Of a stretch of 64,000 nt of DNA, positions 35,563 to 37,688 are shown piece by piece. Under the pieces are notes generated by a model. It did not search any database and was not told the DNA's origin. It worked only from the letters and a program-made list of their open reading frames with translations. The position numbers were made by a program, and so were the translations under genes. The stretch is taken from the NCBI GenBank assembly GCA_902506565.1, contig LR732703.1:2032125-2096124 (forward strand), written 5' to 3'. Each line of letters opens with the position of its first letter. Position 1 is the first letter of the stretch. This stretch comes from Burkholderiales bacterium 8X (GTDB taxonomy: Bacteria; Pseudomonadota; Gammaproteobacteria; Burkholderiales; Burkholderiaceae_C).

Positions 35563-36732
35563 ATGGAAAAAATTCGCGTCGCGATCGTCGGAGTGGGCAA
35601 TTGCGCCTCGTCGCTGGTACAGGGGGTCCGGTTCTATTCGGACGTCGATGAGCCCGGGTTCATACCCGGCCTGATGCATCCGGATCTCGCCGGCTACCGG
35701 CCGGGCGACATCGAGTTCAGCGCCGCTTTCGACGTGCATGCGGACAAGGTCGGCCGGGACCTGAGCGAGGCGATCTTCGCGCCGCCGAACAACACGATCC
35801 GTTTCGCGGACGTGCCGGCCTCGGGCGTGACGGTGCTTCGCGGCGAGCCGCTCGACGGCATCGGCAAGTACGTCCGGCACCTGGTGCCCAAGGCCCGCGG
35901 CAAGGCCTGCAACGTGGCGCAAGTGCTGCGCGACACCCGGACCGACGTGGTGGTCTCGTACCTGCCGGTGGGTTCGGAACAGGCCACCCGGTGGTACGCG
36001 GAGCAGGTGCTCGAAGCCGGCTGCGCCTTCGTCAACTGCGTGCCGGTCTTCATCGCGTCCGACCCGGTCTGGCAGAAGCGCTTCGCCGACAAGGGCTTGC
36101 CGATCATTGGCGACGACATCAAGTCGCAGGTCGGCGCGACCATCGTCCACCGCATCCTGACCGACCTCTTCAAGAAGCGCGGCGTGCGCCTCGACCGCAC
36201 CTACCAGCTCAACTTCGGCGGCAACACCGACTTCCAGAACATGCTGGAGCGCGAGCGGCTGGAATCCAAGAAGATCTCCAAGACGCAGGCCGTCACCAGC
36301 CAGCTGGGCAACCCGATGAAGGCGAGCGATACGCACGTGGGGCCGAGCGACCACGTGCCGTGGCTGGCAGACCGCAAGTGGTGCTACATCCGCATGGAAG
36401 GCACCACCTTCGGCAACGTGCCGCTCAACTGCGAGCTCAAGCTGGAAGTGTGGGATTCGCCGAATTCCGCCGGCGTGGTCATCGATGCGGTGCGCTGCGC
36501 CAAGCTGGCGCTCGACCGCGGCATCGGCGGGCCGGTGCTGGCGCCGTCGAGCTATTTCATGAAATCGCCGCCGCAGCAATTCACCGACGACGAGGCGCAT
36601 GAACTGGTCGAGGCCTTCATCCGCGGCGACGCCGAAGCCAGTGCGCCGCCCGCTCGCAAGGTGGTGGGTGGCCAGGCGGCCCGCAGCAACGAGGCGCCGG
36701 CGCGTGCGGCCAAGCGGAGCAGGCAGGCATGA
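35563..36732 (+). CDS. Myo-inositol-1-phosphate (inositol-3-phosphate) synthase
   Basis: A 389-residue enzyme of the actinobacterial/archaeal-type short class. It isomerises glucose-6-phosphate to inositol phosphate with NAD. Motifs: [20 protein letters not shown] (NAD), [60 protein letters not shown] and [19 protein letters not shown]. The enzyme is common in actinobacteria but scattered in betaproteobacteria. It is divergent from the glycan operon and overlaps the glycosidase-like gene by ATGA. The C-terminal 35 residues are a charged tail. Confidence 0.93.
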
Positions 36733-37688
36733 TCGAGGCGGTCAAGTTCTGGAACGAACCCAACAACAAATCGCACTGGGACCTCGCGCTCGATCCCGAG
36801 TGGAAGGCCTATGCCGAGATGGTCAAGCTGGCCTCCGCCGCGGTGCGCGCCGAAGCGGGCAACCTGACGCAGGTGCTGGGCGGCATCTCGCCGATCGATG
36901 CGCATTTCATGAGGCGGCTGCACGAAGCCGGCGTGCTCAACGGGCTCGACGCGGTCGCGGTGCATGGTTTTCCGCTGGACTGGAACAACTGGCAGATCGG
37001 CGAATGGCCGGATCGCATCGCCGAGATCGAGGCGGTGGTGCACTTGCCGGTCTGGGTGACGGAGGTGGGCGTCTCCACCTTCGGCGCCGAGGAGGTGCAG
37101 CAGTTCGGCCTGCAGCGCACCGCCGAGCTCCTGATCGGGCGGGTGCCGCGCATCTTCTGGTATTCGCTCTACGACCTGCCCAAGGCCTGGCCCGCCACCA
37201 CCCGGCATCGCGAGGCCGAAGGTTCGAGCTACTACCGGCACTTCCACATGGGATTGCTGCGCGAGGACGGCAGCCCCAAGCTGGCCTGCGAGAAATTTGC
37301 CGACTACACGCCGGACCTCGGCATCTGCCAGTGGTTCCACTTCGAGGACCATCGGCTGGACGAGGCGGTCGCCTGGCTGCACCGGCTGGGCGTGCGCAAG
37401 CTGCGCACCGGACTCAGCTGGGCCGACAGTTTCCGGCCGGATGCCGATCGCTGGTTCGATCGGCAGATGAAGGCGCTGGCGGACTTCGACCTGACGGTGA
37501 CCTTCTGCTTCACGCCGGAGCACCGCGGCATCGAGCCGCATCACACGAGTCCGCCGCAGGTCGTCGGCGAGTTCGCCGAGTTCTGCGCGCGGATGGTGAG
37601 GCGTTATGCGCCCGGAGCTGCGGCGCCGCCCGGTGCGGGCGAGCTGATGCGTTCGACCGCGCTGGCTGCGGCATCGCCGATGCTTTGA
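36729..37688 (+). CDS. Glycosidase-like (clan A, GH39/beta-xylosidase-like) protein, apparently circularly permuted
   Basis: A 319-residue protein with two candidate catalytic glutamates of clan A barrels: Glu10 in FWNEPNNK (acid/base) and Glu112 in [12 protein letters not shown] (nucleophile). The NEP motif, normally at strand 4 after about 150 residues, is at the very start. The usual barrel end ([20 protein letters not shown]) comes at 172-192, and the usual barrel beginning ([20 protein letters not shown], then [14 protein letters not shown]) follows at 210-293. The halves therefore look swapped. No signal peptide. It may hydrolyse or transfer a glycoside made by the cluster. Family placement is moderate; the permutation is my reading of motif order. 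Confidence 0.75.

What the first reader, a model, noticed from the sequence alone, without database searches (positions are those of the whole stretch)
36729..37688. Glycosidase-like protein with its TIM-barrel halves in swapped order
The usual clan A order is strand 1 (LGVxxxR.. type), strands 2-3, a RRYAP-type helix, then the WNEPN acid/base motif, then the TEVG nucleophile, then the GLLREDGxPK end. Here the protein starts at FWNEPN, runs through TEVG and the GLLREDG end by residue 192, and only then shows the [16 protein letters not shown] and [11 protein letters not shown] segments that normally precede NEP. This is the motif order expected of a circular permutation, which can arise from tandem duplication and end trimming. 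Its coupling to inositol-3-phosphate synthase suggests a dedicated glycoside substrate.
Basis: partly seen in the sequence, partly recalled or inferred. Interest (0 to 1): 0.8.

Follow-up and report, generated by a model that had tools for sequence, protein, structure and literature searches.

The report
Circularly permuted glycosidase in inositol-linked cassette
This bacterial gene encodes a sugar-cleaving type of enzyme whose barrel-shaped chain begins in the middle and ends with what is normally its start, a natural rearrangement kept in bacteria of several phyla while related enzymes in other bacteria still have the usual order.

Summary
ORF 36729-37688 (+) starts at the WNEPN acid/base motif, passes the TEV nucleophile motif, reaches the barrel end near residue 190, and only then shows the segment that normally comes first. 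All 80 homologues kept by the search (of 466) match from residue 1. The nearest normal-order relatives precede an epimerase in the same kind of cassette; both segments match them, swapped. Rotating the family profile at 22 points gave the best score at 193-196 for four of five targets; a normal-order control profile gained at most 2.2 bits from rotation. Against solved structures, restoring the order raised PslG from 28 to 46 bits and merged two swapped pieces into one. Sampled permuted proteins form one clade. The split is 3+5 strands, not halves. Inositol-phosphate synthase occurred in 28 of 29 permuted-type genomes and 0 of 27 normal-order ones. In two genomes with the permuted gene, a fused normal-order copy has lost both catalytic glutamates; in a third a fragment keeps one. 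New variant of a known kind.

The parts
36729..37688 (+). Permuted glycosidase gene, 319 aa plus stop
36729..37307 (+). Residues 1-193: canonical C-terminal part of the barrel (strands 4-8), with acid/base and nucleophile motifs
   Evidence: residues 5-192 match Paracoccus 109-293 and 2-185 match R. etli 118-299; 2-169 match PslG chain 131-306
37308..37610 (+). Residues 194-294: canonical N-terminal part of the barrel (strands 1-3 and helix 3), moved to the C-terminus
   Evidence: 198-293 match Paracoccus 5-102 and 194-293 match R. etli 13-114; 200-293 match PslG chain 25-128
37611..37685 (+). Residues 295-319: variable tail, absent or one residue long in 31 of 80 homologues
36756..36758 (+). 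Glu10, predicted acid/base (WNEPN)
   Evidence: same letter in 86 of 86 aligned rows; role from clan GH-A knowledge
37062..37064 (+). Glu112, predicted nucleophile (TEVG)
   Evidence: 86 of 86 rows; role from clan GH-A knowledge
36963..36965 (+). His79, predicted active-site residue
   Evidence: 86 of 86 rows; role recalled
37404..37406 (+). Arg226, conserved residue carried by the moved segment
   Evidence: 52 of 52 permuted, 29 of 29 normal-order, 4 of 5 outgroup rows (the fifth is a gap)
35563..36732 (+). Inositol-3-phosphate synthase (PF01658; TIGR03450 550 bits, below its cut-off of 638); its stop codon overlaps the glycosidase start
33052..34368 (-). NAD-dependent epimerase (start uncertain); 53-55% identical to the epimerase half of two normal-order fusions
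34203..35489 (-). Second NAD-dependent epimerase (start uncertain)
   Evidence: matched in 30 of 80 loci
32099..33271 (-). Zinc-binding dehydrogenase (start uncertain); best NCBIfam match scyllo-inosose 3-dehydrogenase, far below cut-off
31000..32112 (-). Oxidoreductase (start uncertain); best NCBIfam match inositol 2-dehydrogenase, far below cut-off
   Evidence: called Gfo/Idh/MocA by analogy
29841..31022 (-). Probable glycosyltransferase, weak match (42 bits) to D-inositol-3-phosphate glycosyltransferase
25792..26472 (-). TIGR04290 methyltransferase domain of the cassette
   Evidence: over the family's cut-off
37604..39334 (-). Epimerase-family gene (start uncertain; homology in the middle 300 residues), probably UDP-glucuronate decarboxylase
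   Evidence: the name is by analogy with genes

Best explanation
The gene encodes a naturally circularly permuted clan GH-A type (beta/alpha)8 glycosidase. Shown by sequence: the chain opens between canonical helix 3 and strand 4, and the old C- and N-termini are joined by a short linker (5 to 8 residues between the aligned ends). It is a sister group of a normal-order glycosidase domain that is fused in front of an NAD-dependent epimerase in the same kind of cassette. Inferred: it folds into an ordinary barrel whose active site brings together Glu10 and Glu112 from one segment and Arg226 from the other; it works by retaining double displacement; it is cytoplasmic; it cleaves or transfers a sugar on a cyclitol-containing glycoside or oligosaccharide intermediate made by the surrounding genes. 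The confidence below is for the permutation of a glycosidase-type barrel; I put catalytic activity at about 0.8 and a cyclitol-related substrate at about 0.5.
For: Swapped two-piece matches to normal-order relatives: E 6e-27 and 5e-12 (Paracoccus), 1e-28 and 9e-10 (R. etli), as pairwise blastp E-values. Rotation scan at 22 cuts, best at 193 with one colinear alignment: L099 164.8 against 102.2 bits in native order, Paracoccus 152.5 against 93.2, R. etli 142.6 against 88.6, archaeal Methanomethylovorans 56.5 against 35.4. Control: on five outgroups the normal-order profile, rotated at 13 cuts, gains 0.1-0.4 bits for four and 2.2 for the weakest, while the permuted profile gains 9.9-29.9 bits. 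PslG: native order 28.4 bits in two swapped pieces, restored order 45.9 bits in one piece, from the same 12 proteins. N9, E10, H79, W109, E112 identical in 86 of 86 rows. Permuted rows one clade, 98/93. Synthase homologue in 28 of 29 permuted-type and 0 of 27 normal-order genomes. Epimerase homologue in 29 of 29 permuted-type genomes. In G762 and G836, which have the permuted gene, the fused normal-order domain has lost both catalytic glutamates.
Against: No fold was predicted, and no activity is known from any call. Restoring the order hardly raised the Pfam score (PF11790 22.4 to 23.6 bits). The X. sacchari target shows a plateau from 193 to 252 and not a peak, and on the outgroups the gain is flat from about 147 to 200. 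G580 has the permuted gene and no synthase hit. G631 has the permuted gene plus a contig-cut normal-order fusion that begins at a glutamate in the nucleophile position, so the two forms are not strictly exclusive. The synthase was seen within the fetched flanks in 50 of 80 loci and immediately upstream in 17. Genomes are related, so the association counts are not independent.
Confidence: 0.9

Rival explanations
1. The protein is not one permuted barrel: residues 1-193 are an incomplete barrel and residues 194-294 a separate domain, completed only by domain swapping between chains.
For: No structure was available, and a domain-swapped dimer would give the same sequence pattern.
Against: 31 of 80 homologues end within one residue of the canonical helix-3 end and residues in both segments are invariant in 68 sequences, as expected for a single closed barrel. 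The linker between the old termini is 5 to 8 residues by the alignments.
Confidence: 0.07
2. The normal N-terminal half was lost by frameshift and the C-terminal match is a second, partial gene copy or chance.
For: The chain does start inside the usual barrel at WNEPN.
Against: 80 of 80 homologues read have the same order. In 39 of 80 no upstream in-frame start exists. The C-terminal segment matches the normal N-terminal part at E 5e-12 and 9e-10.
Confidence: 0.01
3. The permuted barrel is real but the protein is not a hydrolase: it is a transglycosidase or a sugar-binding or regulatory partner of the epimerase.
For: The cassette looks biosynthetic. The normal-order relative is fused to an epimerase. 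Two fused normal-order domains have lost their catalytic glutamates yet persist in frame.
Against: Both glutamates are kept in all 52 permuted and 29 normal-order rows aligned, which argues for chemistry on a glycosidic bond; this does not separate hydrolysis from transfer.
Confidence: 0.35

Closest known systems
Epimerase-fused normal-order glycosidase domain (Rhizobium etli WP_011427519, Paracoccus WP_167624239)
   Same: 31-33% identity over the larger segment and 28-32% over the smaller; same catalytic motifs; related cassette with zinc dehydrogenase, Gfo/Idh/MocA, epimerase, glycosyltransferases, decarboxylase and TIGR04290 methyltransferase
   Different: Canonical strand order, fused in front of the epimerase; no synthase homologue in 27 of 27 genomes of this type
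PslG (PDB 4zn2/5bx9), placed in GH39 by PMC6933502
   Same: Best solved relative by sequence; one colinear match over chain 25-300 once the order is restored
   Different: Normal order, with a C-terminal beta-sandwich (PMC6933502, passages seen); only 45.9 bits
GH70 glucansucrases
   Same: A natural circular permutation of a glycoside-hydrolase barrel, beginning at helix 3 and then strand 4, with a non-permuted sister group (PMC4919382, passages); one helix from the cut here
   Different: Related to GH13 amylases (same passages); clan GH-H and extracellular multidomain by listings; different catalytic motifs (recalled)
Other natural TIM-barrel permutations: transaldolase and class I aldolase, thiaminase I and phosphonopyruvate hydrolase
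   Same: Natural permuted relations between barrels (passages of PMC2213659 and PMC2395249)
   Different: Not glycosidases of clan GH-A
GH3 enzymes with permuted domain topology (PMC5104943, PMC11233000; titles and start of abstracts seen)
   Same: Natural rearrangement in a glycosidase
   Different: By their titles the rearrangement concerns whole domains, not strands within one barrel

Membership tests
Natural circular permutant | Two segments match a homologue in swapped order | tested here: met
Natural circular permutant | A rotated sequence aligns end to end better than the native one, and a normal-order control does not gain | tested here: met
Natural circular permutant | Fold preserved: one closed barrel | not testable with these tools
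   structure prediction switched off
Natural circular permutant | Tandem-duplication intermediate (supports the usual route; not required) | tested here: inconclusive
   no open frame with a repeated segment among the loci scanned; the 80 loci were not scanned that way
Clan GH-A glycosidase | NE(P) acid/base, E nucleophile and conserved Arg, His and Trp positions | tested here: met
   by sequence; roles recalled from clan GH-A
Clan GH-A glycosidase | Retaining beta-glycosidase activity | not testable with these tools
   no activity data in any call
GH39 (Pfam PF01229) | Match to the family model | tested here: not met
   not listed for 68 native members at E 0.1; 2 of 12 order-restored members, best E 0.0073
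PF11790 Glyco_hydro_cc | Score over the gathering cut-off | tested here: met
   P0001 22.4 against 21 bits, residues 8-146 only; 68 of 68 members match at E 0.1, their scores against the cut-off not shown

The most novel reading that the evidence does not exclude
This is the first recognised natural circular permutation of a clan GH-A barrel. It opened almost where GH70 opened independently. The permuted form separated the glycosidase from its epimerase fusion, became tied to inositol-phosphate synthase, and took over the catalytic job, leaving the ancestral fused domain to decay into a pseudo-enzyme in some genomes.
Probability: 0.4. Interest if true: 0.82.

Novelty: new variant of a known kind. 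Interest (0 to 1): 0.72.

Why it matters
Natural permutations of TIM barrels have been described (GH70, transaldolase), but I found none for clan GH-A in the searches. Here a permuted family and a normal-order sister family share a cassette, and two genomes seem to keep a dead normal-order remnant beside the permuted gene. That lets one ask directly whether permutation changes folding, partner choice or substrate, and whether the strand 3/strand 4 boundary is a preferred opening point, since GH70 opened at nearly the same place. It also matters for annotation: Pfam covers only residues 8-146 of the window protein, NCBIfam gives no match, and records call it beta-xylosidase, glycosyl hydrolase or hypothetical protein.

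Tried and rejected
Pfam with restored order gave only a small gain (P0001 22.4 to 23.6 bits for PF11790); it does not support the permutation strongly, because PF11790 matches the larger segment. phmmer of the single protein against solved structures gave no meaningful hit. Own-genome weak hits L082 and L083 are other proteins. An apparent extra N-terminal stretch in L109 was read and lies before the start codon without resemblance that I could see. In one search the targets L098 and L112 were dropped because my strand filter missed them; L112 was used. Xanthomonas sacchari L093 was left out of the tree because its domain is split over two frames. The alignment A1 used 67 of the 80 loci plus P0001. 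The tree used P0001 and 22 of the 80 loci, chosen by hand, plus 29 further permuted rows, 52 in all; one of these (L100) is the window protein again. Strict mutual exclusion of the two forms was considered and rejected because of G631, G762 and G836. Papers: no paper held the terms TIGR04290, circular permutation with GH39, circularly permuted with glycoside hydrolase and clan GH-A, or PslG with inositol-1-phosphate synthase. Searches gave listings; I read passages only, in PMC4919382, PMC2395249, PMC2213659, PMC8250049, PMC13105402 and PMC6933502. PMC2395249 names beta-glucosidases among natural permutants without detail that I saw. One search also lists papers on PgaB and on NodB domains that I did not open; a permuted NodB-type barrel is known to me by recall only. 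Only open-licence papers are held, so absence in print is limited to these searches.

Full report
What was claimed and what is there. Its start codon overlaps the stop codon of inositol-3-phosphate synthase (35563-36732). Pfam sees only residues 8-146 as PF11790 (22.4 bits, cut-off 21), and NCBIfam lists nothing at E 1.

The order is a family trait. A scan of genome contigs found 466 confirmed loci of 474 candidates and kept the best 80; all 80 match from residue 1 to at least 293, at 69-87% identity. One search read all 80: 73 start with ATG and 7 with GTG, and [FIL]WNEPNN stands at residues 7-13 in all 80 (49 F, 19 I, 12 L). Thirty-one end within one residue of RRY(A), and in 39 no in-frame start codon lies upstream. 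The order of the 386 loci not kept was not read. Permuted rows in the tree carry labels from seven phyla: Pseudomonadota, Bacteroidota, Verrucomicrobiota, Acidobacteriota, Myxococcota, Thermodesulfobacteriota and Gemmatimonadota.

Relatives in normal order. Plasmid records include a group at about 31-34% identity; those listed with an annotation are called epimerase. In Paracoccus and R. etli the N-terminal 300 residues are the glycosidase in canonical order: query 198-293 matches Paracoccus 5-102 and query 5-192 matches 109-293; query 194-293 matches R. etli 13-114 and 2-185 matches 118-299. The epimerase halves are 53-55% identical to window ORF 33052-34368, against 27-29% for the other two window epimerases.

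Tests of rotation. The profile of 68 permuted proteins was rotated at 22 points and scored against five normal-order targets. Four of five peak at 193-196 with one colinear alignment; the fifth, X. sacchari, whose first part lies in another frame, has a plateau (130.1-130.9 bits from 193 to 252; native order 102.9). As a control the normal-order profile of 29 rows was rotated at 13 points against five outgroups: its best cut is 270 of 286, which moves only the last 16 positions, and beats native order by 0.1-0.4 bits for four and 2.2 bits for the weakest. The permuted profile gains 9.9-29.9 bits on the same five when rotated, with a broad maximum from about 147 to 200. Against solved structures the same 12 proteins give PslG 28.4 bits in two swapped pieces in native order and 45.9 bits in one piece in restored order. 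The chain therefore opens between the RRY end of helix 3 and the strand that ends in WNEP. Pfam gave only a slight gain on re-ordering.

Anatomy. Asn9, Glu10, His79, Trp109 and Glu112 are identical in 86 of 86 rows, and Arg226 in all 81 ingroup rows. By established clan GH-A anatomy (recalled) Glu10 is the acid/base, Glu112 the nucleophile and Arg226 the strand-2 arginine. The arginine comes from the moved segment, so the active site needs both segments. The catalytic motif lies at residue 8, so I infer there is no signal peptide; no predictor was run.

Evolution. In an 86-row tree the 52 permuted rows form one clade (98/93) and the 29 normal-order rows another (100/96), with five distant outgroups in canonical order. 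The outgroup branches are very long, so the root is uncertain, but canonical order in all five outgroups and in the clan at large (recalled) makes the permuted state derived. One origin fits; no duplicated intermediate was seen in the frames scanned, which did not include the 80 loci.

Who has which form. In 398 Pseudomonadota genomes 12 have the permuted form and 2 the normal-order fusion, plus one distant hit (forms confirmed). In 385 genomes of the class of G323 there are 7 and 7, in 199 of its family 12 and 21, and in 300 drawn from the window's order only the window's own, with two distant hits. Of 61 genomes taken as close relatives 8 carry it, the window's included. The union is 29 permuted and 27 normal-order genomes. 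At E 1e-5 all 27 give one colinear match and all 29 give the two swapped pieces; none of the 29 gives a full-length normal-order match, though G698, G762 and G892 give further partial ones.

The inositol link. The window's synthase has a homologue at E 1e-20 in 28 of 29 permuted-type genomes (not G580) and 0 of 27 normal-order ones (Fisher p 8e-15, not corrected for kinship). TIGR04290 occurs in 29 of 29 and 22 of 27, so the two cassettes share a core and differ in the synthase. In the 80 loci with about 4 kb of flank (less in some) the synthase is seen in 50, the methyltransferase in 44, and the gene directly upstream on the same strand is the methyltransferase in 42, the synthase in 17, a DUF1003 gene in 1 and none of my queries in 20.

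Remnants. All 29 permuted-type genomes have an epimerase homologue. In three of them glycosidase-like sequence still precedes it in the same frame. In G762 and G836 that domain has lost both catalytic glutamates while the permuted copy keeps them. In G631 the contig ends inside the domain; the readable part begins with a glutamate at the nucleophile position, so that copy may be active. Two of three thus suggest that the permuted enzyme took over the work, and the third does not.

Function. Both glutamates being kept argues for chemistry on a glycosidic bond. The neighbours argue for making a cyclitol-containing glycoside or oligosaccharide: synthase, two dehydrogenases whose best but far below cut-off matches are inositol enzymes, epimerases, one weakly matched glycosyltransferase and the methyltransferase in the window, and annotated glycosyltransferases in related cassettes. 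Hydrolysis or transfer, and the exact substrate, are inference; I put permutation at about 0.95, catalytic activity at about 0.8 and a cyclitol-related substrate at about 0.5.

Comparison with the known. GH70 enzymes carry a natural permutation starting at helix 3 and strand 4 and have a non-permuted sister group (PMC4919382, passages); the cut is one helix from the one here, in a different clan. Other natural TIM-barrel permutations are mentioned in PMC2213659 and PMC2395249 (passages). GH3 papers describe permuted domains (titles and abstract starts). No held paper held the term circular permutation with GH39, or circularly permuted with glycoside hydrolase and clan GH-A. The protein does not meet the GH39 Pfam model, so I file it as a PslG-like, clan GH-A type variant and not as GH39.

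Noticed in passing
L184 (G762) and L180/L188 (G836): Epimerase fusions whose normal-order glycosidase domain has lost both catalytic glutamates while an intact permuted gene exists elsewhere in the genome.
   Followed up: yes
L207 (G631), start of contig: A contig-cut fusion with a glutamate at the nucleophile position in a genome that also has the permuted gene; a counter-example to strict exclusion.
   Followed up: partly
L093 around 5900-8090: In the Xanthomonas sacchari R1 record the two parts of the normal-order glycosidase domain lie in different frames; the annotated gene starts inside the domain.
   Followed up: no
L021, L024, L025 and others, 18 of 80 loci: Many permuted genes, nearly all of these 18 from Bacteroidota by their titles, are followed about 1-2 kb on by an oppositely oriented pair annotated elsewhere as F420 hydrogenase beta-subunit-like protein and polysaccharide pyruvyl transferase.
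   Followed up: no
window 38877-39494 (+): A dual-specificity phosphatase-like gene (PF00782) beside the cassette; other cassettes have a histidine phosphatase.
   Followed up: no
L091 6714-8021: In Azospirillum the cassette includes a TIGR04295 (B12_rSAM_oligo) B12-binding radical SAM protein.
   Followed up: no
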